Shown here: positions 1 to 64,000 of the stretch, one piece after another | Layout of the letters: each line of letters opens with the position of its first letter | Numbering within the stretch: the stretch's first letter is position 1 | Source: Brachyhypopomus gauderio | Taxonomy: Eukaryota > Chordata > Actinopteri > Gymnotiformes > Hypopomidae | Direction: 5' to 3' | DNA length: 64,000 bases | NCBI RefSeq assembly: GCF_052324685.1 | Contig: NW_027506880.1 | Coordinates: 1-64,000, forward strand | Translations under genes and position numbers: made by a program | The notes under the pieces: model-generated | Seen by the model: the letters and a program-made list of their open reading frames with translations, nothing else | What the model was told of the DNA's origin: nothing | Databases searched by the model: none

Positions 1-106
1 GAATGGCCGAGCGGTCTAAGGCGCCAGACTCAAGTTGATAAAACTTCCAAAAGTTGGGTTTTCTGGTCTCCCAAAGGAGGCGTGGGTTCAAATCCCACTT
101 CTGACA
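1..106 (+). tRNA. trnL-CAA: tRNA-Leu(CAA) copy 1, class B, 5' end cut by window
   Basis: The first four bases (GTCA) lie outside the window; the rest is an intact class B copy with a T5 terminator. A long spacer follows. Confidence 0.95.
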
Positions 107-110
107 AGTG

Positions 111-115
111 TTTTT
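111..115 (+). terminator. Pol III T5 terminator (type example, copy 1)
   Basis: TTTTT followed by CCATC, the form seen after class B and E copies. Confidence 0.85.
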
Positions 116-333
116 CCATCAACAAATGAATGTAGTTTTGCTGGAACTTTCAACACAAGAGCTCATTATATAGTGAGTAAATGAGAGAAAGAAAGAAACT
201 CCTGTGACATCATAATTGAACATACTTCAACAAAGTAATTTCAGGTTTATTGCTTTTCTTGAAATCTTCAGTTTTGACTGCCTAATCATTAATAAGTCTG
301 ATTTCTAACAAGCAAAAATACCACCAGTCAGAA

Positions 334-344
334 TGGCCGAGCGG
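334..344 (+). promoter_or_regulatory. Pol III A box (type example, copy 2)
   Basis: TGGCCGAGCGG at tRNA positions 8-19 fits the A-box consensus. The same block is at offset 7-17 of nearly every copy. Exceptions are C16G (656, 1223, 8532), A14C (4190), C11A (35487), C12T (58997, 61449) and G18C (eight copies). Confidence 0.92.
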
Positions 345-364
345 TCTAAGGCGCCAGACTCAAG

Positions 365-390
365 TTGATAAAACTTCCAAAAGTTGGGAT
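365..390 (+). other. 26-nt tRNA intron (type example, copy 2)
   Basis: The intron lies between G37 and T38. Its TTGGG (382-386 region, before GAT) can pair with exon CTCAA (32-36), counting one U-G wobble. That leaves a 3-nt bulge next to the CCAGA/TCTGG stem at the 3' splice site, the expected pre-tRNA form for the eukaryotic splicing endonuclease. AACTT and AAGTT inside the intron can form a competing hairpin with a CCAA loop. Confidence 0.9.
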
Positions 391-414
391 TTCTGGTCTC
401 CCAAAGGAGGCGTG

Positions 415-425
415 GGTTCAAATCC
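415..425 (+). promoter_or_regulatory. Pol III B box (type example, copy 2)
   Basis: GGTTCAAATCC at tRNA positions 52-62 is a good TFIIIC B box. It becomes AGTTCAAATCC in class C, GTTTCAAATCC in class D and GGTTGTAATCC in class E. Confidence 0.92.
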
Positions 426-436
426 CACTTCTGACA

Positions 437-655
437 AGTGTTTTCAATCAACAAATGAATCTAGTTTTGCTGGAACTTTCAACACAAGAGCTCATTATAT
501 AGTGAGTAAATGAGAGAAAGAAAGAAACTCCTGTGACATCATAATTGAACAAGCTTCAACAATGTAATTTCAGGTTTATTGCTTTTCTTGAAATCTTCAG
601 TTTTGACTGCCTAATCATTAATAAGTCTGATTTCTAACAAGCAAAAATACCACCA
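437..655 (+). other. Long spacer (type example)
   Basis: Holds the terminator, a near-palindrome ctcattatatagtgag, a GA-rich run (gagagaaagaaagaaac), TGTGACATCA (one base off a CRE core), then a T-rich stretch and the gene-proximal aagcaaaaataccacca. No ORF or second RNA gene is visible. Gene-proximal variants (ataccacca, cacgacca, gtaccagca, ataccacta, ataccaccat) track the class of the next gene. Confidence 0.85.
441..444 (+). terminator. Pol III T4 terminator (type example, copy 2)
   Basis: TTTT follows AGTG just past the gene. Most class A copies, and class C copies before short spacers, have T4; B, D, E and other C copies have T5. Confidence 0.85.
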
Positions 656-765
656 GTCAGAATGGCCGAGGGGTCTAAGGCGCCAGACTCAAGTTGATAA
701 AACTTCCAAAAGTTGGGATTTCTGGTCTCCCAAAGGAGGCGTGGGTTCAAATCCCACTTCTGACA
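656..765 (+). tRNA. trnL-CAA: tRNA-Leu(CAA) copy 3, class A with C16G
   Basis: D-loop C16 is G; the A box still fits its consensus. T4; short spacer follows. Confidence 0.94.
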
Positions 766-893
766 AGTGTTTTCAATCAACAAATGAATCTAGTTTTGAT
801 AGAACTACAAACACAATAGCTCATTATATAATGAGTAAATGAGAGAAATAAAGAAACTCTTGTGACATTATAAGTGAACAAGGTTCAACTCCA
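766..893 (+). other. Short spacer (type example)
   Basis: 128 bp. It matches the long spacer up to gaacaaggttcaac, then lacks about 92 bp and rejoins at tccagtcag. It carries its own marks: gatagaactacaaacacaatag, gaaataaag and TGACATTATAAG. It occurs 58 times; 54 are followed by class D. Confidence 0.9.
820..835. repeat. 16-bp perfect palindrome ctcattatataatgag (type example)
   Basis: Perfect inverted repeat around TATATA, 55-70 bp past the gene. It is perfect after short-unit genes and most class D genes, has one mismatch (tatatagtgag) after A, B and E, and has two altered bases (tacatagtgag) after class C. It could be a protein site or small cruciform; no function is shown. Confidence 0.8.
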
Positions 894-1003
894 GTCAGAA
901 TGGCCGAGCGGTCTAAGGCGCCAGACTCAAGTTGATGAAACTTCCAAAAGTAGGGGTTTCTGTTTTCCCAAAAGAGGCGTGGTTTCAAATCCCACTTCTG
1001 GCA
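894..1003 (+). tRNA. trnL-CAA: tRNA-Leu(CAA) copy 4, class D, degenerate (type example)
   Basis: Exon 1 is perfect, but exon 2 has five changes from class A: G43T breaks the 27-43 pair, C45T and a G-to-A weaken the variable arm, G53T breaks the 53-61 pair and hits the B box, and A71G makes a U-G pair. Three intron changes include TTGGG to TAGGG, which weakens anticodon-intron pairing. It is likely a pseudogene or weakly expressed copy, yet the class is kept 54 times and retains its T5 terminator. It sits after a short spacer. Confidence 0.8.
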
Positions 1004-1222
1004 AGTGTTTTTCCATCAACAAATGAATCTAGTTTTGCTGGAACATTCAACACAAGAGCTCATTATATAATGAGTAAATGAGAGAAAGAAAGAAACTCCT
1101 GTGACATCATAATTGAACATACTTGGACAATGTAATTTCAGGTTTATTGCTTTTCTTGAAATCTTCAGTTTTGACTGCCTAATCATTATAAGTCTGATTT
1201 CTAACAAGCAAAAACACGACCA

Positions 1223-1332
1223 GTCAGAATGGCCGAGGGGTCTAAGGCGCCAGACTCAAGTTGATAAAACTTCCAAAAGTTGGGTTTTCTGGTCTCCCAA
1301 AGGAGGCGTGAGTTCAAATCCCACTTCTGACA
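1223..1332 (+). tRNA. trnL-CAA: tRNA-Leu(CAA) copy 5, class C with C16G (class C type example)
   Basis: Class C has G52A, giving an A52-C62 mismatch in the T stem and a changed first B-box base; the rest of the cloverleaf pairs. The intron ends GGGTT. Expression may be reduced rather than lost. This copy also has C16G. T5; long spacer. Confidence 0.88.
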
Positions 1333-1552
1333 AGTGTTTTTCAATCAACAAATGATTCTAGTTTTGCTGGAACATTCAACACAAGAGCTCATTACATAGT
1401 GAGTAAATGAGAGAAAGAAAGAAACTCCTGTGACATCATAATTGAACATACTTGGACAATGTAATTTCAGGTTTATTGCTTTTCTTGAAATCTTCAGTTT
1501 TGACTGCCTAATCATTAATAAGTCTGATTTCTAACTAGCAAAAGTACCAGCA

Positions 1553-7872: not shown

Positions 7873-7982
7873 GTCAGAATGGCCGAGCGGTCTAAGGCGC
7901 CAGACTCAAGTTGATGAAACTTCCAAAAGTAGGGGTTTCTGTTTTCCCAAAAGAGGCGTGGTTTCAAATCCCACTTCTGGCA
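7873..7982 (+). tRNA. trnL-CAA: tRNA-Leu(CAA) copy 26, class D
   Basis: Degenerate exon 2; downstream spacer is of the class A kind (tatatagtgag). Confidence 0.8.
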
Positions 7983-8202
7983 AGTGTTTTTCCATCAACA
8001 AATGAATCTAGTTTTGCTGGAACTTTCAACACAAGAGCTCATTATATAGTGAGTAAATGAGAGAAAGAAAGAAACTCCTGTGACATCATAATTGAACAAG
8101 CTTCAACAATGTAATTTCAGGTTTATTGCTTTTCTTGAAATCTTCAGTTTTGACTGCCTAATCATTAATAAGTCTGATTTCTAACAAGCAAAAATACCAC
8201 CA

Positions 8203-8312
8203 GTCAGAATGGCCGAGCGGTCTAAGGCGCCAGACTCAAGTTGATAAAACTTCCAAAAGTTGGGATTTCTGGTCTCCCAAAGGAGGCGTGGGTTCAAATC
8301 CCACTTCTGACA
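8203..8312 (+). tRNA. trnL-CAA: tRNA-Leu(CAA) copy 27, class A
   Basis: Intact; T4. The spacer begins like a short one (gatagaactac) but then continues as a long one, a hybrid seen only here. Confidence 0.97.
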
Positions 8313-8531
8313 AGTGTTTTCAATCAACAAATGAATCTAGTTTTGATAGAACTACAAACACAATAGCTCATTATATAGTGAGTAAATGAGAGAAAGAAAG
8401 AAACTCCTGTGACATCATAATTGAACAAGCTTCAACAATGTAATTTCAGGTTTATTGCTTTTCTTGAAATCTTCAGTTTTGACTGCCTAATCATTAATAA
8501 GTCTGATTTCTAACAAGCAAAAATACCACCA

Positions 8532-43431: not shown

Positions 43432-43559
43432 AGTGTTTTCAATCAACAAATGAATCTAGTTTTGATAGAACTACAAACACAATAGCTCATTATATAATGA
43501 GTAAATGAGAGAAATAAAGAAACTCTTGTGACATTATAAGTGAACAAGTTTCAACTCCA

Positions 43560-43888: not shown

Positions 43889-43998
43889 ATCAGAATGGCC
43901 GAGCCGTCTAAGGCGCCAGACTCAAGTTGATAAAACTTCCAAAAGTTGGGTTTTCTGGTCTCCCAAAGGAGGCGTGGGTTCAAATCCCACTTCTGACA
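43889..43998 (+). tRNA. trnL-CAA: tRNA-Leu(CAA) copy 145, class B with G1A and G18C
   Basis: Same double change as copy 103; a key marker of the duplication. Confidence 0.8.
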
Positions 43999-44218
43999 AG
44001 TGTTTTTCCATCAACAAATGAATGTAGTTTTGCTGGAACTTTCAACACAAGAGCTCATTATATAGTGAGTAAATGAGAGAAAGAAAGAAACTCCTGTGAC
44101 ATCATAATTGTACATACTTCAACAAAGTAATTTCAGGTTTATTGCTTTTCTTGAAATCTTCAGTTTTGACTGCCTAATCATTAATAAGACTGATTTCTAA
44201 CAAGCAAAAATACCACCA

Positions 44219-44328
44219 GTCAGAATGGCCGAGCGGTCTAAGGCGCCAGACTCAAGTTGATAAAACTTCCAAAAGTTGGGATTTCTGGTCTCCCAAAGGA
44301 GGCGTGAGTTCAAATCCCACTTCTGACA
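44219..44328 (+). tRNA. trnL-CAA: tRNA-Leu(CAA) copy 146, class C'
   Basis: G52A with class A intron; T5. Confidence 0.9.
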
Positions 44329-44548
44329 AGTGTTTTTCAATCAACAAATGATTCTAGTTTTGCTGGAACTTTCAACACAAGAGCTCATTATATAGTGAGT
44401 AAATGAGAGAAAGAAAGAAACTCCTGTGACATCATAATTGAACAAGCTTCAACAATGTAATTTCAGGTTTATTGCTTTTCTTGAAATCTTCAGTTTTGAC
44501 TGCCTAATCATTAATAAGTCTGATTTCTAACAAGCAAAAATACCACCA

Positions 44549-44658
44549 GTCAGAATGGCCGAGCGGTCTAAGGCGCCAGACTCAAGTTGATAAAACTTCC
44601 AAAAGTTGGGATTTCTGGTCTCCCAAAGGAGGCGTGGGTTCAAATCCCACTTCTGACA
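44549..44658 (+). tRNA. trnL-CAA: tRNA-Leu(CAA) copy 147, class A
   Basis: Intact; T4; short spacer. Confidence 0.97.
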
Positions 44659-44786
44659 AGTGTTTTCAATCAACAAATGAATCTAGTTTTGATAGAACTA
44701 CAAACACAATAGCTCATTATATAATGAGTAAATGAGAGAAATAAAGAAACTCTTGTGACATTATAAGTGAACAAGGTTCAACTCCA

Positions 44787-44896
44787 GTCAGAATGGCCGA
44801 GCGGTCTAAGGCGCCAGACTCAAGTTGATGAAACTTCCAAAAGTAGGGGTTTCTGTTTTCCCAAAAGAGGCGTGGTTTCAAATCCCACTTCTGGCA
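44787..44896 (+). tRNA. trnL-CAA: tRNA-Leu(CAA) copy 148, class D
   Basis: Degenerate exon 2; ends phrase 10. Confidence 0.8.
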
Positions 44897-45115
44897 AGTG
44901 TTTTTCCATCAACAAATGAATCTAGTTTTGCTGGAACATTCAACACAAGAGCTCATTATATAATGAGTAAATGAGAGAAAGAAAGAAACTCCTGTGACAT
45001 CATAATTGAACATACTTGGACAATGTAATTTCAGGTTTATTGCTTTTCTTGAAATCTTCAGTTTTGACTGCCTAATCATTATAAGTCTGATTTCTAACAA
45101 GCAAAAACACGACCA

Positions 45116-45225
45116 GTCAGAATGGCCGAGCGGTCTAAGGCACCAGACTCAAGTTGATAAAACTTCCAAAAGTTGGGTTTTCTGGTCTCCCAAAGGAGGC
45201 GTGAGTTCAAATCCCACTTCTGACA
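45116..45225 (+). tRNA. trnL-CAA: tRNA-Leu(CAA) copy 149, class C with G26A, phrase head
   Basis: G26A, G52A; T5. Confidence 0.89.
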
Positions 45226-45445
45226 AGTGTTTTTCAATCAACAAATGATTCTAGTTTTGCTGGAACATTCAACACAAGAGCTCATTACATAGTGAGTAAA
45301 TGAGAGAAAGAAAGAAACTCCTGTGACATCATAATTGAACATACTTGGACAATGTAATTTCAGGTTTATTGCTTTTCTTGAAATCTTCAGTTTTGACTGC
45401 CTAATCATTAATAAGTCTGATTTCTAACTAGCAAAAGTACCAGCA

Positions 45446-45555
45446 GTCAGAATGGCCGAGCGGTCTAAGGCGCCAGACTCAAGTTGATAAAACTTCCAAA
45501 AGTTGGGTTTTCTGGTCTCCCAAAGGAGGCGTGGGTTCAAATCCCACTTCTGACA
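45446..45555 (+). tRNA. trnL-CAA: tRNA-Leu(CAA) copy 150, class B
   Basis: Intact; T5; long spacer. Confidence 0.97.
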
Positions 45556-45775
45556 AGTGTTTTTCCATCAACAAATGAATGTAGTTTTGCTGGAACTTTC
45601 AACACAAGAGCTCATTATATAGTGAGTAAATGAGAGAAAGAAAGAAACTCCTGTGACATCATAATTGAACATACTTCAACAAAGTAATTTCAGGTTTATT
45701 GCTTTTCTTGAAATCTTCAGTTTTGACTGCCTAATCATTAATAAGACTTATTTCTAACAAGCAAAAATACCACCA

Positions 45776-45885
45776 GTCAGAATGGCCGAGCGGTCTAAGG
45801 CGCCAGACTCAAGTTGATAAAACTTCCAAAAGTTGGGTTTTCTGGTCTCCCAAAGGAGGCGTGAGTTCAAATCCCACTTCTGACA
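45776..45885 (+). tRNA. trnL-CAA: tRNA-Leu(CAA) copy 151, class C
   Basis: G52A; T4; short spacer. Confidence 0.9.
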
Positions 45886-46013
45886 AGTGTTTTCAATCAA
45901 CAAATGAATCTAGTTTTGATAGAACTACAAACACAATAGCTCATTATATAATGAGTAAATGAGAGAAATAAAGAAACTCTTGTGACATTATAAGTGAACA
46001 AGGTTCAACTCCA

Positions 46014-46123
46014 GTCAGAATGGCCGAGCGGTCTAAGGCGCCAGACTCAAGTTGATGAAACTTCCAAAAGTAGGGGTTTCTGTTTTCCCAAAAGAGGCGT
46101 GGTTTCAAATCCCACTTCTGGCA
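46014..46123 (+). tRNA. trnL-CAA: tRNA-Leu(CAA) copy 152, class D
   Basis: Degenerate exon 2; long spacer. Confidence 0.8.
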
Positions 46124-46343
46124 AGTGTTTTTCCATCAACAAATGAATCTAGTTTTGCTGGAACATTCAACACAAGAGCTCATTATATAATGAGTAAATG
46201 AGAGAAAGAAAGAAACTCCTGTGACATCATAATTGAACATACTTGGACAATGTAATTTCAGGTTTATTGCTTTTCTTGAAATCTTCAGTTTTGACTGCCT
46301 AATCATTAATAAGACTGATTTCTAACAAGCAAAAATACCACCA

Positions 46344-46453
46344 GTCAGAATGGCCGAGCGGTCTAAGGCGCCAGACTCAAGTTGATAAAACTTCCAAAAG
46401 TTGGGTTTTCTGGTCTCCCAAAGGAGGCGTGGGTTGTAATCCCACTTCTGACA
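46344..46453 (+). tRNA. trnL-CAA: tRNA-Leu(CAA) copy 153, class E
   Basis: C56G, A57T; T5. Confidence 0.8.
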
Positions 46454-46673
46454 AGTGTTTTTCCATCAACAAATGAATGTAGTTTTGCTGGAACTTTCAA
46501 CACAAGAGCTCATTATATAGTGAGTAAATGAGAGAAAGAAAGAAACTCCTGTGACATCATAATTGAACAAGCTTCAACAATGTAATTTCAGGTTTATTGC
46601 TTTTCTTGAAATCTTCAGTTTTGACTGCCTAATCATTAATAAGTCTGATTTCTAACAAGCAAAAATACCACCA

Positions 46674-46783
46674 GTCAGAATGGCCGAGCGGTCTAAGGCG
46701 CCAGACTCAAGTTGATAAAACTTCCAAAAGTTGGGATTTCTGGTCTCCCAAAGGAGGCGTGGGTTCAAATCCCACTTCTGACA
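46674..46783 (+). tRNA. trnL-CAA: tRNA-Leu(CAA) copy 154, class A
   Basis: Intact; T5, class C-like downstream. Confidence 0.97.
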
Positions 46784-47003
46784 AGTGTTTTTCAATCAAC
46801 AAATGATTCTAGTTTTGCTGGAACTTTCAACACAAGAGCTCATTATATAGTGAGTAAATGAGAGAAAGAAAGAAACTCCTGTGACATCATAATTGAACAA
46901 GCTTCAACAATGTAATTTCAGGTTTATTGCTTTTCTTGAAATCTTCAGTTTTGACTGCCTAATCATTAATAAGTCTGATTTCTAACAAGCAAAAATACCA
47001 CCA

Positions 47004-47113
47004 GTCAGAATGGCCGAGCGGTCTAAGGCGCCAGACTCAAGTTGATAAAACTTCCAAAAGTTGGGATTTCTGGTCTCCCAAAGGAGGCGTGGGTTCAAAT
47101 CCCACTTCTGACA
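47004..47113 (+). tRNA. trnL-CAA: tRNA-Leu(CAA) copy 155, class A
   Basis: Intact; T4; short spacer. Confidence 0.97.
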
Positions 47114-47241
47114 AGTGTTTTCAATCAACAAATGAATCTAGTTTTGATAGAACTACAAACACAATAGCTCATTATATAATGAGTAAATGAGAGAAATAAA
47201 GAAACTCTTGTGACATTATAAGTGAACAAGGTTCAACTCCA

Positions 47242-47351
47242 GTCAGAATGGCCGAGCGGTCTAAGGCGCCAGACTCAAGTTGATGAAACTTCCAAAAGTA
47301 GGGGTTTCTGTTTTCCCAAAAGAGGCGTGGTTTCAAATCCCACTTCTGGCA
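47242..47351 (+). tRNA. trnL-CAA: tRNA-Leu(CAA) copy 156, class D
   Basis: Degenerate exon 2; attaaaag boundary spacer follows. Confidence 0.8.
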
Positions 47352-47570
47352 AGTGTTTTTCCATCAACAAATGAATCTAGTTTTGCTGGAACATTCAACA
47401 CAAGAGCTCATTATATAATGAGTAAATGAGAGAAAGAAAGAAACTCCTGTGACATCATAATTGAACATACTTGGACAATGTAATTTCAGGTTTATTGCTT
47501 TTCTTGAAATCTTCAGTTTTGACTGCCTAATCATTAAAAGTCTGATTTCTAACAAGCAAAAATACCACCA

Positions 47571-47680
47571 GTCAGAATGGCCGAGCGGTCTAAGGCGCCA
47601 GACTCAAGTTGATAAAACTTCCAAAAGTTGGGTTTTCTGGTCTCCCAAAGGAGGCGTGAGTTCAAATCCCACTTCTGACA
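47571..47680 (+). tRNA. trnL-CAA: tRNA-Leu(CAA) copy 157, class C, phrase head
   Basis: G52A; T5; long spacer. Confidence 0.9.
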
Positions 47681-47900
47681 AGTGTTTTTCAATCAACAAA
47701 TGATTCTAGTTTTGCTGGAACATTCAACACAAGAGCTCATTACATAGTGAGTAAATGAGAGAAAGAAAGAAACTCCTGTGACATCATAATTGAACATACT
47801 TGGACAATGTAATTTCAGGTTTATTGCTTTTCTTGAAATCTTCAGTTTTGACTGCCTAATCATTAATAAGTCTGATTTCTAACTAGCAAAAGTACCAGCA

Positions 47901-48010
47901 GTCAGAATGGCCGAGCGGTCTAAGGCGCCAGACTCAAGTTGATAAAACTTCCAAAAGTTGGGTTTTCTGGTCTCCCAAAGGAGGCGTGGGTTCAAATCCC
48001 ACTTCTGACA
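47901..48010 (+). tRNA. trnL-CAA: tRNA-Leu(CAA) copy 158, class B
   Basis: Intact; T5; long spacer. Confidence 0.97.
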
Positions 48011-48230
48011 AGTGTTTTTCCATCAACAAATGAATGTAGTTTTGCTGGAACTTTCAACACAAGAGCTCATTATATAGTGAGTAAATGAGAGAAAGAAAGA
48101 AACTCCTGTGACATCATAATTGAACATACTTCAACAAAGTAATTTCAGGTTTATTGCTTTTCTTGAAATCTTCAGTTTTGACTGCCTAATCATTAATAAG
48201 ACTTATTTCTAACAAGCAAAAATACCACCA

Positions 48231-48340
48231 GTCAGAATGGCCGAGCGGTCTAAGGCGCCAGACTCAAGTTGATAAAACTTCCAAAAGTTGGGTTTTCTGG
48301 TCTCCCAAAGGAGGCGTGAGTTCAAATCCCACTTCTGACA
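48231..48340 (+). tRNA. trnL-CAA: tRNA-Leu(CAA) copy 159, class C
   Basis: G52A; normal C11, unlike its counterpart at 35487; short spacer. Confidence 0.9.
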
Positions 48341-48468
48341 AGTGTTTTCAATCAACAAATGAATCTAGTTTTGATAGAACTACAAACACAATAGCTCATT
48401 ATATAATGAGTAAATGAGAGAAATAAAGAAACTCTTGTGACATTATAAGTGAACAAGGTTCAACTCCA

Positions 48469-48578
48469 GTCAGAATGGCCGAGCGGTCTAAGGCGCCAGA
48501 CTCAAGTTGATAAAACTTCCAAAAGTTGGGATTTCTGGTCTCCCAAAGGAGGCGTGGGTTCAAATCCCACTTCTGACA
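48469..48578 (+). tRNA. trnL-CAA: tRNA-Leu(CAA) copy 160, class A in class D position
   Basis: Intact after a short spacer; counterpart of copy 118. Confidence 0.97.
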
Positions 48579-48797
48579 AGTGTTTTCAATCAACAAATGA
48601 ATCTAGTTTTGCTGGAACTTTCAACACAAGAGCTCATTATATAGTGAGTAAATGAGAGAAAGAAAGAAACTCCTGTGACATCATAATTGAACAAGCTTCA
48701 ACAATGTAATTTCAGGTTTATTGCTTTTCTTGAAATCTTCAGTTTTGACTGCCTAATCATTAATAAGTCTGATTTCTAACAAGCAAAAATACCACTA

Positions 48798-48907
48798 GTC
48801 AGAATGGCCGAGCGGTCTAAGGCGCCAGACTCAAGTTGATAAAACTTCCAAAAGTTGGGATTTCTGGTCTCCCAAAGGAGGCGTGGGTTCAAATCCCACT
48901 TCTGACA
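48798..48907 (+). tRNA. trnL-CAA: tRNA-Leu(CAA) copy 161, class A
   Basis: Intact; short spacer with gagaagtaaag. Confidence 0.97.
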
Positions 48908-49035
48908 AGTGTTTTCAATCAACAAATGAATCTAGTTTTGATAGAACTACAAACACAATAGCTCATTATATAATGAGTAAATGAGAGAAGTAAAGAAACT
49001 CTTGTGACATTATAAGTGAACAAGGTTCAACTCCA

Positions 49036-49145
49036 GTCAGAATGGCCGAGCGGTCTAAGGCGCCAGACTCAAGTTGATGAAACTTCCAAAAGTAGGGGTT
49101 TCTGTTTTCCCAAAAGAGGCGTGGTTTCAAATCCCACTTCTGGCA
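49036..49145 (+). tRNA. trnL-CAA: tRNA-Leu(CAA) copy 162, class D
   Basis: Degenerate exon 2; long spacer. Confidence 0.8.
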
Positions 49146-49365
49146 AGTGTTTTTCCATCAACAAATGAATCTAGTTTTGCTGGAACATTCAACACAAGAG
49201 CTCATTATATAATGAGTAAATGAGAGAAAGAAAGAAACTCCTGTGACATCATAATTGAACATACTTGGACAATGTAATTTCAGGTTTATTGCTTTTCTTG
49301 AAATCTTCAGTTTTGACTGCCTAATCATTAATAAGACTGATTTCTAACAAGCAAAAATACCACCA

Positions 49366-49475
49366 GTCAGAATGGCCGAGCGGTCTAAGGCGCCAGACTC
49401 AAGTTGATAAAACTTCCAAAAGTTGGGTTTTCTGGTCTCCCAAAGGAGGCGTGGGTTGTAATCCCACTTCTGACA
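49366..49475 (+). tRNA. trnL-CAA: tRNA-Leu(CAA) copy 163, class E
   Basis: C56G, A57T; T5. Confidence 0.8.
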
Positions 49476-49695
49476 AGTGTTTTTCCATCAACAAATGAAT
49501 GTAGTTTTGCTGGAACTTTCAACACAAGAGCTCATTATATAGTGAGTAAATGAGAGAAAGAAAGAAACTCCTGTGACATCATAATTGAACAAGCTTCAAC
49601 AATGTAATTTCAGGTTTATTGCTTTTCTTGAAATCTTCAGTTTTGACTGCCTAATCATTAATAAGTCTGATTTCTAACAAGCAAAAATACCACCA

Positions 49696-49805
49696 GTCAG
49701 AATGGCCGAGCGGTCTAAGGCGCCAGACTCAAGTTGATAAAACTTCCAAAAGTTGGGATTTCTGGTCTCCCAAAGGAGGCGTGGGTTCAAATCCCACTTC
49801 TGACA
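49696..49805 (+). tRNA. trnL-CAA: tRNA-Leu(CAA) copy 164, class A
   Basis: Intact; T4; long spacer. Confidence 0.97.
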
Positions 49806-50024
49806 AGTGTTTTCAATCAACAAATGAATCTAGTTTTGCTGGAACTTTCAACACAAGAGCTCATTATATAGTGAGTAAATGAGAGAAAGAAAGAAACTCC
49901 TGTGACATCATAATTGAACAAGCTTCAACAATGTAATTTCAGGTTTATTGCTTTTCTTGAAATCTTCAGTTTTGACTGCCTAATCATTAATAAGTCTGAT
50001 TTCTAACAAGCAAAAATACCACCA

Positions 50025-50134
50025 TTCAGAATGGCCGAGCGGTCTAAGGCGCCAGACTCAAGTTGATAAAACTTCCAAAAGTTGGGATTTCTGGTCTCCC
50101 AAAGGAGGCGTGGGTTCAAATCCCACTTCTGACA
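50025..50134 (+). tRNA. trnL-CAA: tRNA-Leu(CAA) copy 165, class A with G1T
   Basis: Short spacer with aagtttcaac. Confidence 0.88.
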
Positions 50135-50262
50135 AGTGTTTTCAATCAACAAATGAATCTAGTTTTGATAGAACTACAAACACAATAGCTCATTATATAA
50201 TGAGTAAATGAGAGAAATAAAGAAACTCTTGTGACATTATAAGTGAACAAGTTTCAACTCCA

Positions 50263-50372
50263 GTCAGAATGGCCGAGCGGTCTAAGGCGCCAGACTCAAG
50301 TTGATGAAACTTCCAAAAGTAGGGGTTTCTGTTTTCCCAAAAGAGGCGTGGTTTCAAATCCCACTTCTGGCA
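50263..50372 (+). tRNA. trnL-CAA: tRNA-Leu(CAA) copy 166, class D
   Basis: Degenerate exon 2; long spacer. Confidence 0.8.
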
Positions 50373-50591
50373 AGTGTTTTTCCATCAACAAATGAATCTA
50401 GTTTTGCTGGAACATTCAACACAAGAGCTCATTATATAATGAGTAAATGAGAGAAAGAAAGAAACTCCTGTGACATCATAATTGAACATACTTGGACAAT
50501 GTAATTTCAGGTTTATTGCTTTTCTTGAAATCTTCAGTTTTGACTGCCTAATCATTATAAGTCTGATTTCTAACAAGCAAAAACACGACCA

Positions 50592-50701
50592 GTCAGAATG
50601 GCCGAGCCGTCTAAGGCGCCAGACTCAAGTTGATAAAACTTCCAAAAGTTGGGTTTTCTGGTCTCCCAAAGGAGGCGTGGGTTCAAATCCCACTTCTGAC
50701 A
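50592..50701 (+). tRNA. trnL-CAA: tRNA-Leu(CAA) copy 167, class B with G18C
   Basis: Spacer attgtacat; counterpart of copy 125. Confidence 0.82.
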
Positions 50702-50921
50702 AGTGTTTTTCCATCAACAAATGAATGTAGTTTTGCTGGAACTTTCAACACAAGAGCTCATTATATAGTGAGTAAATGAGAGAAAGAAAGAAACTCCTGT
50801 GACATCATAATTGTACATACTTCAACAAAGTAATTTCAGGTTTATTGCTTTTCTTGAAATCTTCAGTTTTGACTGCCTAATCATTAATAAGACTGATTTC
50901 TAACAAGCAAAAATACCACCA

Positions 50922-51031
50922 GTCAGAATGGCCGAGCGGTCTAAGGCGCCAGACTCAAGTTGATAAAACTTCCAAAAGTTGGGATTTCTGGTCTCCCAAA
51001 GGAGGCGTGAGTTCAAATCCCACTTCTGACA
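50922..51031 (+). tRNA. trnL-CAA: tRNA-Leu(CAA) copy 168, class C'
   Basis: G52A with class A intron; T5. Confidence 0.9.
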
Positions 51032-51251
51032 AGTGTTTTTCAATCAACAAATGATTCTAGTTTTGCTGGAACTTTCAACACAAGAGCTCATTATATAGTG
51101 AGTAAATGAGAGAAAGAAAGAAACTCCTGTGACATCATAATTGAACAAGCTTCAACAATGTAATTTCAGGTTTATTGCTTTTCTTGAAATCTTCAGTTTT
51201 GACTGCCTAATCATTAATAAGTCTGATTTCTAACAAGCAAAAATACCACCA

Positions 51252-51361
51252 GTCAGAATGGCCGAGCGGTCTAAGGCGCCAGACTCAAGTTGATAAAACT
51301 TCCAAAAGTTGGGATTTCTGGTCTCCCAAAGGAGGCGTGGGTTCAAATCCCACTTCTGACA
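51252..51361 (+). tRNA. trnL-CAA: tRNA-Leu(CAA) copy 169, class A
   Basis: Intact; T4; short spacer. Confidence 0.97.
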
Positions 51362-51489
51362 AGTGTTTTCAATCAACAAATGAATCTAGTTTTGATAGAA
51401 CTACAAACACAATAGCTCATTATATAATGAGTAAATGAGAGAAATAAAGAAACTCTTGTGACATTATAAGTGAACAAGGTTCAACTCCA

Positions 51490-51599
51490 GTCAGAATGGC
51501 CGAGCGGTCTAAGGCGCCAGACTCAAGTTGATGAAACTTCCAAAAGTAGGGGTTTCTGTTTTCCCAAAAGAGGCGTGGTTTCAAATCCCACTTCTGGCA
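51490..51599 (+). tRNA. trnL-CAA: tRNA-Leu(CAA) copy 170, class D
   Basis: Degenerate exon 2; long spacer. Confidence 0.8.
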
Positions 51600-51819
51600 A
51601 GTGTTTTTCCATCAACAAATGAATCTAGTTTTGCTGGAACATTCAACACAAGAGCTCATTATATAATGAGTAAATGAGAGAAAGAAAGAAACTCCTGTGA
51701 CATCATAATTGAACATACTTGGACAATGTAATTTCAGGTTTATTGCTTTTCTTGAAATCTTCAGTTTTGACTGCCTAATCATTAATAAGTCTGATTTCTA
51801 ACAAGCAAAAATACCACCA

Positions 51820-51929
51820 GTCAGAATGGCCGAGCGGTCTAAGGCGCCAGACTCAAGTTGATAAAACTTCCAAAAGTTGGGATTTCTGGTCTCCCAAAGG
51901 AGGCGTGGGTTCAAATCCCACTTCTGACA
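51820..51929 (+). tRNA. trnL-CAA: tRNA-Leu(CAA) copy 171, class A
   Basis: Intact; T4; short spacer. Confidence 0.97.
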
Positions 51930-52057
51930 AGTGTTTTCAATCAACAAATGAATCTAGTTTTGATAGAACTACAAACACAATAGCTCATTATATAATGAGT
52001 AAATGAGAGAAATAAAGAAACTCTTGTGACATTATAAGTGAACAAGGTTCAACTCCA

Positions 52058-52167
52058 GTCAGAATGGCCGAGCGGTCTAAGGCGCCAGACTCAAGTTGAT
52101 GAAACTTCCAAAAGTAGGGGTTTCTGTTTTCCCAAAAGAGGCGTGGTTTCAAATCCCACTTCTGGCA
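52058..52167 (+). tRNA. trnL-CAA: tRNA-Leu(CAA) copy 172, class D
   Basis: Degenerate exon 2; ends phrase 12. Confidence 0.8.
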
Positions 52168-52386
52168 AGTGTTTTTCCATCAACAAATGAATCTAGTTTT
52201 GCTGGAACATTCAACACAAGAGCTCATTATATAATGAGTAAATGAGAGAAAGAAAGAAACTCCTGTGACATCATAATTGAACATACTTGGACAATGTAAT
52301 TTCAGGTTTATTGCTTTTCTTGAAATCTTCAGTTTTGACTGCCTAATCATTATAAGTCTGATTTCTAACAAGCAAAAACACGACCA

Positions 52387-52496
52387 GTCAGAATGGCCGA
52401 GCGGTCTAAGGCACCAGACTCAAGTTGATAAAACTTCCAAAAGTTGGGTTTTCTGGTCTCCCAAAGGAGGCGTGAGTTCAAATCCCACTTCTGACA
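52387..52496 (+). tRNA. trnL-CAA: tRNA-Leu(CAA) copy 173, class C with G26A, phrase head
   Basis: G26A, G52A; T5. Confidence 0.89.
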
Positions 52497-52716
52497 AGTG
52501 TTTTTCAATCAACAAATGATTCTAGTTTTGCTGGAACATTCAACACAAGAGCTCATTACATAGTGAGTAAATGAGAGAAAGAAAGAAACTCCTGTGACAT
52601 CATAATTGAACATACTTGGACAATGTAATTTCAGGTTTATTGCTTTTCTTGAAATCTTCAGTTTTGACTGCCTAATCATTAATAAGTCTGATTTCTAACT
52701 AGCAAAAGTACCAGCA

Positions 52717-52826
52717 GTCAGAATGGCCGAGCGGTCTAAGGCGCCAGACTCAAGTTGATAAAACTTCCAAAAGTTGGGTTTTCTGGTCTCCCAAAGGAGG
52801 CGTGGGTTCAAATCCCACTTCTGACA
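52717..52826 (+). tRNA. trnL-CAA: tRNA-Leu(CAA) copy 174, class B
   Basis: Intact; spacer ends aaaacaccacca, as at copy 132. Confidence 0.97.
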
Positions 52827-53046
52827 AGTGTTTTTCCATCAACAAATGAATGTAGTTTTGCTGGAACTTTCAACACAAGAGCTCATTATATAGTGAGTAA
52901 ATGAGAGAAAGAAAGAAACTCCTGTGACATCATAATTGAACATACTTCAACAAAGTAATTTCAGGTTTATTGCTTTTCTTGAAATCTTCAGTTTTGACTG
53001 CCTAATCATTAATAAGACTTATTTCTAACAAGCAAAAACACCACCA

Positions 53047-53156
53047 GTCAGAATGGCCGAGCGGTCTAAGGCGCCAGACTCAAGTTGATAAAACTTCCAA
53101 AAGTTGGGTTTTCTGGTCTCCCAAAGGAGGCGTGAGTTCAAATCCCACTTCTGACA
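53047..53156 (+). tRNA. trnL-CAA: tRNA-Leu(CAA) copy 175, class C
   Basis: G52A; T4; short spacer. Confidence 0.9.
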
Positions 53157-53284
53157 AGTGTTTTCAATCAACAAATGAATCTAGTTTTGATAGAACTACA
53201 AACACAATAGCTCATTATATAATGAGTAAATGAGAGAAATAAAGAAACTCTTGTGACATTATAAGTGAACAAGGTTCAACTCCA

Positions 53285-53393
53285 GTCAGAATGGCCGAGC
53301 GGTCTAAGGCGCCAGACTCAAGTTGATGAACTTCCAAAAGTAGGGGTTTCTGTTTTCCCAAAAGAGGCGTGGTTTCAAATCCCACTTCTGGCA
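53285..53393 (+). tRNA. trnL-CAA: tRNA-Leu(CAA) copy 176, class D'
   Basis: 109 bp, intron deletion. Confidence 0.78.
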
Positions 53394-53613
53394 AGTGTTT
53401 TTCCATCAACAAATGAATCTAGTTTTGCTGGAACTTTCAACACAAGAGCTCATTATATAGTGAGTAAATGAGAGAAAGAAAGAAACTCCTGTGACATCAT
53501 AATTGAACAAGCTTCAACAATGTAATTTCAGGTTTATTGCTTTTCTTGAAATCTTCAGTTTTGACTGCCTAATCATTAATAAGTCTGATTTCTAACAAGC
53601 AAAAATACCACCA

Positions 53614-53723
53614 GTCAGAATGGCCGAGCGGTCTAAGGCGCCAGACTCAAGTTGATAAAACTTCCAAAAGTTGGGATTTCGGGTCTCCCAAAGGAGGCGT
53701 GGGTTCAAATCCCACTTCTGACA
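53614..53723 (+). tRNA. trnL-CAA: tRNA-Leu(CAA) copy 177, class A with T41G
   Basis: Anticodon-stem A29-G41 mismatch; short spacer. Confidence 0.9.
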
Positions 53724-53851
53724 AGTGTTTTCAATCAACAAATGAATCTAGTTTTGATAGAACTACAAACACAATAGCTCATTATATAATGAGTAAATGA
53801 GAGAAGTAAAGAAACTCTTGTGACATTATAAGTGAACAAGGTTCAACTCCA

Positions 53852-53961
53852 GTCAGAATGGCCGAGCGGTCTAAGGCGCCAGACTCAAGTTGATGAAACT
53901 TCCAAAAGTAGGGGTTTCTGTTTTCCCAAAAGAGGCGTGGTTTCAAATCCCACTTCTGGCA
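53852..53961 (+). tRNA. trnL-CAA: tRNA-Leu(CAA) copy 178, class D
   Basis: Degenerate exon 2; long spacer. Confidence 0.8.
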
Positions 53962-54181
53962 AGTGTTTTTCCATCAACAAATGAATCTAGTTTTGCTGGA
54001 ACATTCAACACAAGAGCTCATTATATAATGAGTAAATGAGAGAAAGAAAGAAACTCCTGTGACATCATAATTGAACATACTTGGACAATGTAATTTCAGG
54101 TTTATTGCTTTTCTTGAAATCTTCAGTTTTGACTGCCTAATCATTAATAAGACTGATTTCTAACAAGCAAAAATACCACCA

Positions 54182-54291
54182 GTCAGAATGGCCGAGCGGT
54201 CTAAGGCGCCAGACTCAAGTTGATAAAACTTCCAAAAGTTGGGTTTTCTGGTCTCCCAAAGGAGGCGTGGGTTGTAATCCCACTTCTGACA
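54182..54291 (+). tRNA. trnL-CAA: tRNA-Leu(CAA) copy 179, class E
   Basis: C56G, A57T; T5. Confidence 0.8.
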
Positions 54292-54511
54292 AGTGTTTTT
54301 CCATCAACAAATGAATGTAGTTTTGCTGGAACTTTCAACACAAGAGCTCATTATATAGTGAGTAAATGAGAGAAAGAAAGAAACTCCTGTGACATCATAA
54401 TTGAACAAGCTTCAACAATGTAATTTCAGGTTTATTGCTTTTCTTGAAATCTTCAGTTTTGACTGCCTAATCATTAATAAGTCTGATTTCTAACAAGCAA
54501 AAATACCACCA

Positions 54512-54621
54512 GTCAGAATGGCCGAGCGGTCTAAGGCGCCAGACTCAAGTTGATAAAACTTCCAAAAGTTGGGATTTCTGGTCTCCCAAAGGAGGCGTGG
54601 GTTCAAATCCCACTTCTGACA
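54512..54621 (+). tRNA. trnL-CAA: tRNA-Leu(CAA) copy 180, class A
   Basis: Intact; T4; long spacer. Confidence 0.97.
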
Positions 54622-54840
54622 AGTGTTTTCAATCAACAAATGAATCTAGTTTTGCTGGAACTTTCAACACAAGAGCTCATTATATAGTGAGTAAATGAGA
54701 GAAAGAAAGAAACTCCTGTGACATCATAATTGAACAAGCTTCAACAATGTAATTTCAGGTTTATTGCTTTTCTTGAAATCTTCAGTTTTGACTGCCTAAT
54801 CATTAATAAGTCTGATTTCTAACAAGCAAAAATACCACCA

Positions 54841-54950
54841 TTCAGAATGGCCGAGCGGTCTAAGGCGCCAGACTCAAGTTGATAAAACTTCCAAAAGTTG
54901 GGATTTCTGGTCTCCCAAAGGAGGCGTGGGTTCAAATCCCACTTCTGACA
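54841..54950 (+). tRNA. trnL-CAA: tRNA-Leu(CAA) copy 181, class A with G1T
   Basis: Short spacer with aagtttcaac. Confidence 0.88.
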
Positions 54951-55078
54951 AGTGTTTTCAATCAACAAATGAATCTAGTTTTGATAGAACTACAAACACA
55001 ATAGCTCATTATATAATGAGTAAATGAGAGAAATAAAGAAACTCTTGTGACATTATAAGTGAACAAGTTTCAACTCCA

Positions 55079-55188
55079 GTCAGAATGGCCGAGCGGTCTA
55101 AGGCGCCAGACTCAAGTTGATGAAACTTCCAAAAGTAGGGGTTTCTGTTTTCCCAAAAGAGGCGTGGTTTCAAATCCCACTTCTGGCA
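55079..55188 (+). tRNA. trnL-CAA: tRNA-Leu(CAA) copy 182, class D
   Basis: Degenerate exon 2; long spacer. Confidence 0.8.
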
Positions 55189-55407
55189 AGTGTTTTTCCA
55201 TCAACAAATGAATCTAGTTTTGCTGGAACATTCAACACAAGAGCTCATTATATAATGAGTAAATGAGAGAAAGAAAGAAACTCCTGTGACATCATAATTG
55301 AACATACTTGGACAATGTAATTTCAGGTTTATTGCTTTTCTTGAAATCTTCAGTTTTGACTGCCTAATCATTATAAGTCTGATTTCTAACAAGCAAAAAC
55401 ACGACCA

Positions 55408-55517
55408 GTCAGAATGGCCGAGCCGTCTAAGGCGCCAGACTCAAGTTGATAAAACTTCCAAAAGTTGGGTTTTCTGGTCTCCCAAAGGAGGCGTGGGTTC
55501 AAATCCCACTTCTGACA
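55408..55517 (+). tRNA. trnL-CAA: tRNA-Leu(CAA) copy 183, class B with G18C
   Basis: Last copy of the right 12,744-bp repeat; the spacer switches from attgtacat to attataag/cacgacca. Confidence 0.82.
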
Positions 55518-55736
55518 AGTGTTTTTCCATCAACAAATGAATGTAGTTTTGCTGGAACTTTCAACACAAGAGCTCATTATATAGTGAGTAAATGAGAGAA
55601 AGAAAGAAACTCCTGTGACATCATAATTGTACATACTTCAACAAAGTAATTTCAGGTTTATTGCTTTTCTTGAAATCTTCAGTTTTGACTGCCTAATCAT
55701 TATAAGTCTGATTTCTAACAAGCAAAAACACGACCA

Positions 55737-60991: not shown

Positions 60992-60993
60992 AG

Positions 60994-61686: not shown

Positions 61687-61796
61687 GTCAGAATGGCCGA
61701 GCGGTCTAAGGCGCCAGACTCAAGTTGATGAAACTTCCAAAAGTAGGGGTTTCTGTTTTCCCAAAAGAGGCGTGGTTTCAAATCCCACTTCTGGCA
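61687..61796 (+). tRNA. trnL-CAA: tRNA-Leu(CAA) copy 204, class D
   Basis: Degenerate exon 2; long spacer. Confidence 0.8.
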
Positions 61797-62016
61797 AGTG
61801 TTTTTCCATCAACAAATGAATCTAGTTTTGCTGGAACATTCAACACAAGAGCTCATTATATAATGAGTAAATGAGAGAAAGAAAGAAACTCCTGTGACAT
61901 CATAATTGAACATACTTGGACAATGTAATTTCAGGTTTATTGCTTTTCTTGAAATCTTCAGTTTTGACTGCCTAATCATTAATAAGACTGATTTCTAACA
62001 AGCAAAAATACCACCA

Positions 62017-62126
62017 GTCAGAATGGCCGAGCGGTCTAAGGCGCCAGACTCAAGTTGATAAAACTTCCAAAAGTTGGGTTTTCTGGTCTCCCAAAGGAGG
62101 CGTGGGTTGTAATCCCACTTCTGACA
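62017..62126 (+). tRNA. trnL-CAA: tRNA-Leu(CAA) copy 205, class E
   Basis: C56G, A57T; T5. Confidence 0.8.
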
Positions 62127-62346
62127 AGTGTTTTTCCATCAACAAATGAATGTAGTTTTGCTGGAACTTTCAACACAAGAGCTCATTATATAGTGAGTAA
62201 ATGAGAGAAAGAAAGAAACTCCTGTGACATCATAATTGAACAAGCTTCAACAATGTAATTTCAGGTTTATTGCTTTTCTTGAAATCTTCAGTTTTGACTG
62301 CCTAATCATTAATAAGTCTGATTTCTAACAAGCAAAAATACCACCA

Positions 62347-62456
62347 GTCAGAATGGCCGAGCGGTCTAAGGCGCCAGACTCAAGTTGATAAAACTTCCAA
62401 AAGTTGGGATTTCTGGTCTCCCAAAGGAGGCGTGGGTTCAAATCCCACTTCTGACA
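62347..62456 (+). tRNA. trnL-CAA: tRNA-Leu(CAA) copy 206, class A
   Basis: Intact; T4; long spacer. Confidence 0.97.
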
Positions 62457-62675
62457 AGTGTTTTCAATCAACAAATGAATCTAGTTTTGCTGGAACTTTC
62501 AACACAAGAGCTCATTATATAGTGAGTAAATGAGAGAAAGAAAGAAACTCCTGTGACATCATAATTGAACAAGCTTCAACAATGTAATTTCAGGTTTATT
62601 GCTTTTCTTGAAATCTTCAGTTTTGACTGCCTAATCATTAATAAGTCTGATTTCTAACAAGCAAAAATACCACCA

Positions 62676-62785
62676 TTCAGAATGGCCGAGCGGTCTAAGG
62701 CGCCAGACTCAAGTTGATAAAACTTCCAAAAGTTGGGATTTCTGGTCTCCCAAAGGAGGCGTGGGTTCAAATCCCACTTCTGACA
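62676..62785 (+). tRNA. trnL-CAA: tRNA-Leu(CAA) copy 207, class A with G1T
   Basis: Short spacer with aagtttcaac. Confidence 0.88.
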
Positions 62786-62913
62786 AGTGTTTTCAATCAA
62801 CAAATGAATCTAGTTTTGATAGAACTACAAACACAATAGCTCATTATATAATGAGTAAATGAGAGAAATAAAGAAACTCTTGTGACATTATAAGTGAACA
62901 AGTTTCAACTCCA

Positions 62914-63023
62914 GTCAGAATGGCCGAGCGGTCTAAGGCGCCAGACTCAAGTTGATGAAACTTCCAAAAGTAGGGGTTTCTGTTTTCCCAAAAGAGGCGT
63001 GGTTTCAAATCCCACTTCTGGCA
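62914..63023 (+). tRNA. trnL-CAA: tRNA-Leu(CAA) copy 208, class D
   Basis: Degenerate exon 2; long spacer. Confidence 0.8.
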
Positions 63024-63242
63024 AGTGTTTTTCCATCAACAAATGAATCTAGTTTTGCTGGAACATTCAACACAAGAGCTCATTATATAATGAGTAAATG
63101 AGAGAAAGAAAGAAACTCCTGTGACATCATAATTGAACATACTTGGACAATGTAATTTCAGGTTTATTGCTTTTCTTGAAATCTTCAGTTTTGACTGCCT
63201 AATCATTATAAGTCTGATTTCTAACAAGCAAAAACACGACCA

Positions 63243-63352
63243 GTCAGAATGGCCGAGCCGTCTAAGGCGCCAGACTCAAGTTGATAAAACTTCCAAAAGT
63301 TGGGTTTTCTGGTCTCCCAAAGGAGGCGTGGGTTCAAATCCCACTTCTGACA
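63243..63352 (+). tRNA. trnL-CAA: tRNA-Leu(CAA) copy 209, class B with G18C
   Basis: Spacer attgtacat, ending in the ordinary ataccacca form. Confidence 0.82.
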
Positions 63353-63572
63353 AGTGTTTTTCCATCAACAAATGAATGTAGTTTTGCTGGAACTTTCAAC
63401 ACAAGAGCTCATTATATAGTGAGTAAATGAGAGAAAGAAAGAAACTCCTGTGACATCATAATTGTACATACTTCAACAAAGTAATTTCAGGTTTATTGCT
63501 TTTCTTGAAATCTTCAGTTTTGACTGCCTAATCATTAATAAGACTGATTTCTAACAAGCAAAAATACCACCA

Positions 63573-63682
63573 GTCAGAATGGCCGAGCGGTCTAAGGCGC
63601 CAGACTCAAGTTGATAAAACTTCCAAAAGTTGGGATTTCTGGTCTCCCAAAGGAGGCGTGAGTTCAAATCCCACTTCTGACA
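63573..63682 (+). tRNA. trnL-CAA: tRNA-Leu(CAA) copy 210, class C'
   Basis: G52A with class A intron; T5. Confidence 0.9.
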
Positions 63683-63902
63683 AGTGTTTTTCAATCAACA
63701 AATGATTCTAGTTTTGCTGGAACTTTCAACACAAGAGCTCATTATATAGTGAGTAAATGAGAGAAAGAAAGAAACTCCTGTGACATCATAATTGAACAAG
63801 CTTCAACAATGTAATTTCAGGTTTATTGCTTTTCTTGAAATCTTCAGTTTTGACTGCCTAATCATTAATAAGTCTGATTTCTAACAAGCAAAAATACCAC
63901 CA

Positions 63903-64000
63903 GTCAGAATGGCCGAGCGGTCTAAGGCGCCAGACTCAAGTTGATAAAACTTCCAAAAGTTGGGATTTCTGGTCTCCCAAAGGAGGCGTGGGTTCAAATC
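63903..64000 (+). tRNA. trnL-CAA: tRNA-Leu(CAA) copy 211, class A, 3' end cut by window
   Basis: The last 12 bases lie outside the window; everything up to T-loop base 60 and the next base is class A. Confidence 0.94.

What the first reader, a model, noticed from the sequence alone, without database searches (positions are those of the whole stretch)
1..64000. A 64-kb satellite whose monomer is an intron-bearing tRNA-Leu(CAA) gene
211 same-strand copies of one isoacceptor with nothing else between them. Tandem tRNA clusters are known in some eukaryotes (Xenopus, zebrafish, Entamoeba), but those I recall mix several tRNAs or use larger units. A single intron-containing species at one gene per roughly 300 bp, with satellite-like order, is unusual.
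Basis: partly seen in the sequence, partly recalled or inferred. Interest (0 to 1): 0.85.

Follow-up and report, generated by a model that had tools for sequence, protein, structure and literature searches.

The report
Tandem tRNA-Leu(CAA) satellite, mostly broken copies
A 64-kb stretch of DNA from an unidentified genome consists of 211 head-to-tail copies of one intron-bearing leucine tRNA gene, of which about a third or fewer look able to make a working tRNA; it is a striking but not unprecedented kind of gene satellite.

Summary
The window is a wall-to-wall tandem array: 209 complete and 2 end-cut copies (211) of one intron-containing tRNA-Leu(CAA) gene, all on +. Units are 326-331 bp (151 of 209) or 238 bp (58 of 209), mean 304 bp. 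There are 47 distinct monomers in seven classes, with large repeated blocks; one 12,744-bp block is tandemly doubled with 2 differences.

The copies are not equivalent genes. By stem pairs and conserved residues, 74 of 209 are intact; 54 of those also lack an internal TTTT, a possible Pol III stop. The other 135 carry lesions; 54 share a doubly broken 3' half. Classes A and B differ at 15 of 128 spacer sites but 0 of 84 exon sites, yet most other class pairs show no such contrast. Mosaic monomers show recombination. Spacers nearly lack CpG.

Best reading: a functional gene amplified by unequal exchange and conversion, now mostly passenger copies. Tandem tRNA satellites are in print for maize, Nippostrongylus, Phytophthora and Hydractinia, so this is a new member of a known kind. 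Species, array ends, expression and assembly correctness remain unknown.

The parts
1..64000 (+). Tandem array of intron-bearing tRNA-Leu(CAA) units: 209 complete + 2 cut copies, array continues beyond both ends
1..106 (+). First copy, cut at its 5' end by the window edge
327..436 (+). Example of an intact copy (class A): exon 1 327-364, intron 365-390, exon 2 391-436; all tested stems and conserved residues kept, no internal TTTT
334..344 (+). A-box-like internal promoter sequence of that copy (TGGCCGAGCGG); consensus recalled
   Evidence: sequence
415..425 (+). B-box-like internal promoter sequence of that copy (GGTTCAAATCC), present unchanged in 98 of 209 copies; consensus recalled
   Evidence: sequence; count
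441..444 (+). Pol III terminator-like T run; a run of 4 or more T starts 5 bases after the gene in 208 of 209 complete copies and 3 bases after it in the other one
656..893 (+). Example of a 238-bp monomer (class B): spacer shorter by about 92 bp; 58 of 209 units
894..1222 (+). Example of class C monomer: gene with unpaired 27:43 and 53:61 and an internal TTTT at gene position 70; classes C + E are 54 of 209
1223..1552 (+). Example of class D monomer (A52 facing C62 in the T stem)
7873..8202 (+). First of 7 class E monomers: class C gene joined to class A spacer, one switch between unit positions 136 and 152 (shown on the class E consensus)
8203..8531 (+). Class F monomer (one copy): class B gene and proximal spacer joined to class A distal spacer, one switch between unit positions 163 and 177
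30214..42957 (+). 12,744-bp block, first copy
42958..55701 (+). 12,744-bp block, second copy, directly adjacent; 2 mismatches in a 12,774-bp comparison
63903..64000 (+). Last copy, cut at its 3' end by the window edge

Best explanation
This is a tRNA-gene satellite. A once-functional tRNA-Leu(CAA) gene with its own short flanks (internal promoter, 26-nt intron, T-run terminator) was amplified head to tail. SHOWN from sequence: unit structure, isotype by anticodon, monomer classes, crossover-type mosaics (E, F), a large block duplication as assembled, near-identical exons in two class pairs with diverged spacers (A/B, B/D), and lesions in most copies. INFERRED: (1) amplification and homogenisation by unequal crossing-over and gene conversion; (2) a degenerate 3' half (class C) entered by conversion and was then spread as a passenger of multi-monomer block amplification; (3) DNA methylation of the spacer in the germ line; (4) only the intact subset (54, at most about 74, of 209 copies here) can yield usable tRNA, and much of the array is probably silent or stage-restricted, by analogy with what is discussed in print for the repetitive tRNA regions of zebrafish chromosome 4.
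For: Array and isotype. Classes and order: 47 distinct monomers, 21 seen once; neighbour pairs AB 46, BC 47, BE 7, BA 4 of 208. Recombination: F switches B to A once, E switches C to A once; exact repeats of at least 1.5 kb cover 83% of the window, and a 12,744-bp block is tandemly doubled. Past constraint: A vs B 0 of 84 exon sites and 15 of 128 spacer sites differ (Fisher p = 5e-4); B vs D 1 of 84 and 21 of 128 (p = 1.5e-4) (2 of 10 class pairs, uncorrected). Decay: 135 of 209 copies with lesions; class C gene differs from A at 8 sites, all between gene positions 44 and 108. Transcription-ready anatomy: T run just after the gene in 209 of 209. The commonest intact form folds better than shuffles (z -2.76), the commonest class C form does not (z 0.17). 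CpG: commonest class A spacer 0 observed, 5.5 expected, TpG and CpA 1.4-1.5 times expected.
Against: No expression, chromatin or methylation data. Across all monomers, exon columns vary about as often as spacer columns (exon 1 7 of 38, exon 2 9 of 46; spacer 18 of 105, 8 of 65, 10 of 40 and, next to the gene, 1 of 10), so constraint on the present array is not visible in that measure. Of ten class pairs, seven show no significant exon-spacer contrast, and A vs E shows the reverse of constraint (5 of 84 exon against 1 of 220 spacer sites, p = 0.007). Exon identity between A and B could also come from conversion confined to the gene. The class D consensus switches between A-like and C-like sites more than once, so it is not a single-crossover mosaic. 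CpG counts of the copies are not independent: they amount to one ancestral spacer.
Confidence: 0.72

Rival explanations
1. A dosage battery: the array is kept large by selection because eggs or early embryos need much tRNA-Leu(CAA); the broken copies are tolerated load.
For: Zebrafish isodecoders present in eggs and early embryos lie in highly repetitive regions, those that rise later are scattered genes, and Leu-CAA is one of the tRNAs that switches isodecoder (PMC11417395, passages). 74 of 209 copies intact; exons preserved between spacer-diverged classes A/B and B/D.
Against: 135 of 209 copies have lesions. Another zebrafish study found no correlation of gene copy number with tRNA level and notes that 60% of predicted genes lie on largely heterochromatic chromosome 4 (PMC11574265, passage). 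The species of the window is unknown.
Confidence: 0.15
2. A chromatin or structural element: the copies act as TFIIIC-binding sites, boundary or heterochromatin repeats, and making tRNA is incidental.
For: The human 1q23.3 tRNA repeat is proposed as a boundary element (PMC4041453, abstract and passages). 98 of 209 copies keep the B-box sequence GGTTCAAATCC, more than the 74 with intact tRNA structure.
Against: The human unit is 7.3 kb, GC-rich and CpG-rich and binds CTCF; this spacer is 31% GC and almost without CpG. 111 of 209 copies have a changed B box, so B boxes are not preserved either.
Confidence: 0.08
3. Partly an assembly product: a real, shorter array inflated by assembly errors or by joining two haplotypes. 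This can be true together with any of the other readings, so the odds do not sum to one.
For: A 12,744-bp block is exactly adjacent to a copy with 2 differences in 12,774 bp; exact repeats of 7.5, 5.3 and 4.2 kb occur.
Against: 47 distinct monomers, 21 of them seen once, and varied block order are not what simple inflation gives; recent block duplication is normal for satellites (recalled).
Confidence: 0.15

Closest known systems
Maize tRNA satellite (tRNASAT_ZM), 91.95-kb array on chr4L, PMC10335936 (passages)
   Same: A satellite array named after its tRNA content, of similar length scale
   Different: Plant; the passages that I saw do not give isotype, unit length or intron
Nippostrongylus brasiliensis long tandem repeats of tRNA-Trp (close to 150 copies of ~200 bp) and tRNA-Ser (90 copies), PMC5765664 (passages)
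   Same: Single isotype, one gene per short unit, species-specific spacer, about 100-200 copies
   Different: Nematode; other isotypes; classes and lesions not described in the passages that I saw
Phytophthora infestans tandem tRNA arrays, e.g. 271 tRNA-Cys(GCA) with 513-nt unit, PMC9584435 (passages)
   Same: Single-isotype array of more than 200 copies; unequal crossing-over proposed
   Different: Monomeric arrays on one chromosome there are described as nearly identical repeats; here seven classes and many lesions
Hydractinia ncRNA tandem arrays, PMC11067881 (passages)
   Same: Animal; evenly spaced arrays of tens to hundreds of similar ncRNA copies, tRNAs included
   Different: Arrays for tRNAs of all 20 amino acids; [quoted passage not shown]
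Zebrafish tRNA clusters, chromosome 4 above all, PMC11417395, PMC11574265, PMC2888827 (passages)
   Same: Very many clustered, mostly same-strand tRNA copies in repetitive DNA
   Different: Zebrafish neighbours are described as mostly heterogeneous pairs; here a single isoacceptor. I could not test whether the window is from a fish
Plant tRNA clusters: tRNA-Ile 28-copy tandem repeat in maize, tRNA-Pro and Tyr-Ser clusters in Arabidopsis (PMC11700998, passages); clusters of 2-110 genes in 50 plants (PMC12652284, passages)
   Same: Tandem same-isotype tRNA genes
   Different: Smaller; no satellite-like class structure described in the passages that I saw
Human 1q23.3 tRNA VNTR, PMC4041453 (abstract and passages)
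   Same: tRNA-containing tandem repeat including a tRNA-Leu gene
   Different: 7.3-kb GC-rich unit with five tRNA genes on both strands

Membership tests
Eukaryotic tRNA-Leu(CAA) gene | Covariance-model score above the tRNA cut-off | tested here: met
   210 matches at or above gathering score, the 150 rows seen all RF00005 with cut-off 29 bits, best 51.5; class C and E copies about 35-36.6
Eukaryotic tRNA-Leu(CAA) gene | CAA anticodon, intron after position 37, long variable arm, A73 | tested here: met
   No anticodon change in 209 of 209; ARAGORN caa with 26-nt intron in printed rows; variable arm and final A in the sequences. Leu identity beyond the anticodon rests on recall
Eukaryotic tRNA-Leu(CAA) gene | Intact stems and conserved residues in every copy | tested here: not met
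   74 of 209 intact, 135 of 209 not
Eukaryotic tRNA-Leu(CAA) gene | Transcribed, spliced and charged | not testable with these tools
   No RNA data
Satellite DNA | Long head-to-tail array of similar units | tested here: met
   209 contiguous units
Satellite DNA | Signs of recombination within the array, higher-order blocks | tested here: met
   Mosaic monomers, block repeats
Zebrafish-type maternal tRNA cluster | Expression in egg and early embryo, vertebrate host | not testable with these tools
   Host genome not held
tRNA-derived SINE | Dispersed copies with target-site duplications and A-rich or LINE-like tail (recalled) | tested here: inconclusive
   Inside the window the units are strictly contiguous, unlike a SINE; copies elsewhere in the genome could not be looked for

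The most novel reading that the evidence does not exclude
The array is a stage-specific source of both tRNA-Leu(CAA) and truncated 5' transcripts: 54 class C/E copies and 78 others carry an internal TTTT that could stop Pol III at the end of the intron or in the variable arm, so broken copies, spread with intact ones in the same blocks, would make abundant 5' tRNA-half-like RNAs with the intron attached.
Probability: 0.06. Interest if true: 0.6.

Novelty: new member of a known kind. Interest (0 to 1): 0.35.

Why it matters
It is a clear natural example of a gene family turning into satellite DNA: intact genes, a decayed gene form, mosaics and block duplications lie in one array, so conversion, constraint and decay can be measured against each other. 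It also warns that counting tRNA hits overstates usable genes: here about two thirds of complete copies (135 of 209) fail simple structural checks although Rfam reports 210 matches above the cut-off for the 211 copies.

Tried and rejected
Host identification failed: no genome is held for the window. Exact patterns from gene and spacer had 0 matches in viral contigs and 0 in prokaryote genome contigs. A 17-base gene pattern hit 3 viral contigs; the bases around the hits do not look like the gene and ARAGORN found no tRNA in them with or without introns, so I take them for chance. No collection of eukaryote genomes was at hand, so absence of relatives means nothing here.

Rejected: chance (209 contiguous units); mixed-isotype cluster (209 of 209 anticodons CAA); equal constraint on all copies today. 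Set aside, not excluded: a link to a SINE elsewhere in the genome. A TATAAG 25 bases before the gene that follows every class B unit (58 of 58, and 0 of 151 other units) was noted, its effect not tested.

Literature: 10 searches of open-licence PMC papers only; in their listings and the passages that I opened I found no report of a Leu-CAA satellite, which is no proof of absence. Of the 13 papers opened I saw passages around search terms (for some the abstract), none in full. PMC8450103, PMC9526063 and PMC7919458 gave nothing that changes the reading. The Xenopus 3.18-kb tRNA repeat is from recall; Entamoeba arrays from listing lines.

Full report
What is there. The window contains nothing but a tandem array. 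Matching both gene ends gives 210 starts and 210 ends on + and none on -; with one copy cut at each edge this is 209 complete and 2 partial copies. The 209 full units are 330 (94), 238 (58), 329 (55), 326 (1) and 331 (1) bp long, mean 304.2. Rfam reports 210 matches above its cut-offs (150 rows printed, all tRNA on +; 60 not printed); re-scans of 1-6500 and 54000-64000 list only tRNA (20 and 32 rows). ARAGORN finds none without introns, 125 or 154 with introns and 230 when overlaps are allowed, which includes predictions spanning two copies; the rows that I printed are all tRNA-Leu (caa). The anticodon is CAA in 209 of 209 complete copies.

Anatomy of one unit. Gene of 110 bp: exon 1 of 38, intron of 26, exon 2 of 46. 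A run of four or more T begins 5 bases after the gene in 208 of 209 copies and 3 bases after it in the other one. Internal A- and B-box-like sequences are present (consensus recalled); the B-box sequence GGTTCAAATCC is unchanged in 98 of 209. In the predicted fold of the intact form the intron pairs with the anticodon region, an arrangement known from tRNA introns (recalled); class C changes that intron segment from GTTGGG to GTAGGG. The spacer is about 219-220 bp, or 128 bp in the 238-bp class B.

Classes and order. There are 47 distinct monomers, 21 seen once. Linking those within 4 edits gives seven classes: A 77, B 58, C 47, D 18, E 7, F 1, G 1; other thresholds give 2 to 11 groups. A B unit is followed by C 47, E 7 and A 4 times of 58. 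Exact repeats of at least 1.5 kb cover 83% of the window; the longest is 7,487 bp. At an offset of 12,744 bp a 12,774-bp stretch has 2 mismatches, so block 30214-42957 is followed directly by its copy. This can be a recent block duplication or an assembly error; I cannot tell which.

How many copies could work. I checked acceptor (7 pairs), D (3), anticodon (5) and T (5) stem pairs and residues 8, 14, 18, 19, 54-58 plus the anticodon in the 209 complete copies. 74 pass; 135 fail. The failing groups: 54 copies (the class C and E genes) with 27:43 and 53:61 unpaired; 40 with A52 facing C62 (two of them with further lesions); 16 with T-loop TTG and T57; 14 with a lost 1:72 pair (two of them also with C18); 6 with C18 only; 4 with 29:41 unpaired; 1 with T57 only. 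An internal TTTT, which could stop vertebrate Pol III (recalled), is present in 132 of 209; 54 copies are both intact and free of it: 26 class A, 27 class B, 1 class F. Folding of three variants: intact z -2.76, class C z 0.17, the commonest class D gene z -1.34. Rfam scores fall from about 51 to about 35-36.6 bits in the class C gene form but stay above the cut-off. The check ignores the variable arm and other tertiary contacts, and charging cannot be predicted from it.

Constraint and decay. Between class consensus sequences, A and B differ at 15 of 128 spacer sites and 0 of 84 exon sites (p = 5e-4); B and D at 21 of 128 and 1 of 84 (p = 1.5e-4). So in these pairs exons stayed the same while spacers diverged by 12-16%, through selection or conversion. 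The other eight of ten pairs do not show this: A-C p = 0.32, A-D 0.12, B-C 0.07, B-E 0.33, C-D 0.20, C-E 0.19, D-E 0.58, and A-E shows the reverse (5 of 84 exon against 1 of 220 spacer sites, p = 0.007); p values are uncorrected. Across all monomers exon columns vary about as often as spacer columns. The simplest reading is constraint before or early in the expansion and relaxation later. The class C gene differs from A at 8 sites (3 in the intron, 5 in exon 2), all in gene positions 44-108 with none in 1-43. In the class E consensus this gene form sits in front of a class A spacer with one switch between positions 136 and 152; class F switches once from B to A between 163 and 177; class D is a less simple mixture of A-like and C-like sites. 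These are what unequal crossing-over or conversion can leave.

Composition. The commonest class A spacer has 0 CpG against 5.5 expected (shuffle p = 0.001) with TpG and CpA 1.4-1.5 times expected; the commonest class C spacer has 1 against 5.6 (p = 0.011) and class B 0 against 2.7 (p = 0.045); 194 of 209 genes hold four CpG. This fits a genome that methylates CpG in the germ line, such as a vertebrate, but the copies are not independent, so it is one observation on one ancestral spacer. The host is not identified.

Place among known things. Passages in print describe a 91.95-kb tRNA satellite in maize (PMC10335936), close to 150 copies of a ~200-bp tRNA-Trp unit and 90 tRNA-Ser copies in Nippostrongylus brasiliensis (PMC5765664), 271 tRNA-Cys(GCA) with a 513-nt unit in Phytophthora infestans (PMC9584435), and ncRNA arrays of tens to hundreds of copies, tRNAs included, in Hydractinia (PMC11067881); the last authors call tandem tRNA arrays unusual outside Entamoeba, with one mammalian case (PMC4041453). 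Plants have smaller tandem clusters (PMC11700998; PMC12652284). Zebrafish tRNAs of eggs and early embryos come from repetitive regions, and Leu-CAA is among those that switch isodecoder (PMC11417395); a second study finds no correlation of copy number with tRNA level (PMC11574265). I saw passages, not whole papers. The window is thus a new member of a known kind, with an unusually clear record of decay inside the array.

Verdict. Observation confirmed; reading as 211 genes only partly supported; rarity overstated. Main gaps: species, array ends, read support, expression.

Noticed in passing
30214-55701: A 12,744-bp block is followed directly by a copy with 2 differences; it should be checked against reads for false duplication.
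   Followed up: partly
e.g. 894-1003: Class C gene changes cluster in gene positions 44-108 with none in 1-43, as if a diverged 3' half had been pasted in.
   Followed up: partly
e.g. 869-874 (before the gene at 894): The shortened class B spacer puts a TATAAG 25 bases before the following gene in 58 of 58 class B units and in 0 of 151 others; that gene is the broken class C or E in 54 of 58. Whether this affects transcription is unknown.
   Followed up: partly
1-64000: Spacers contain almost no CpG while 194 of 209 genes hold four, as expected for methylated DNA around a conserved gene.
   Followed up: yes
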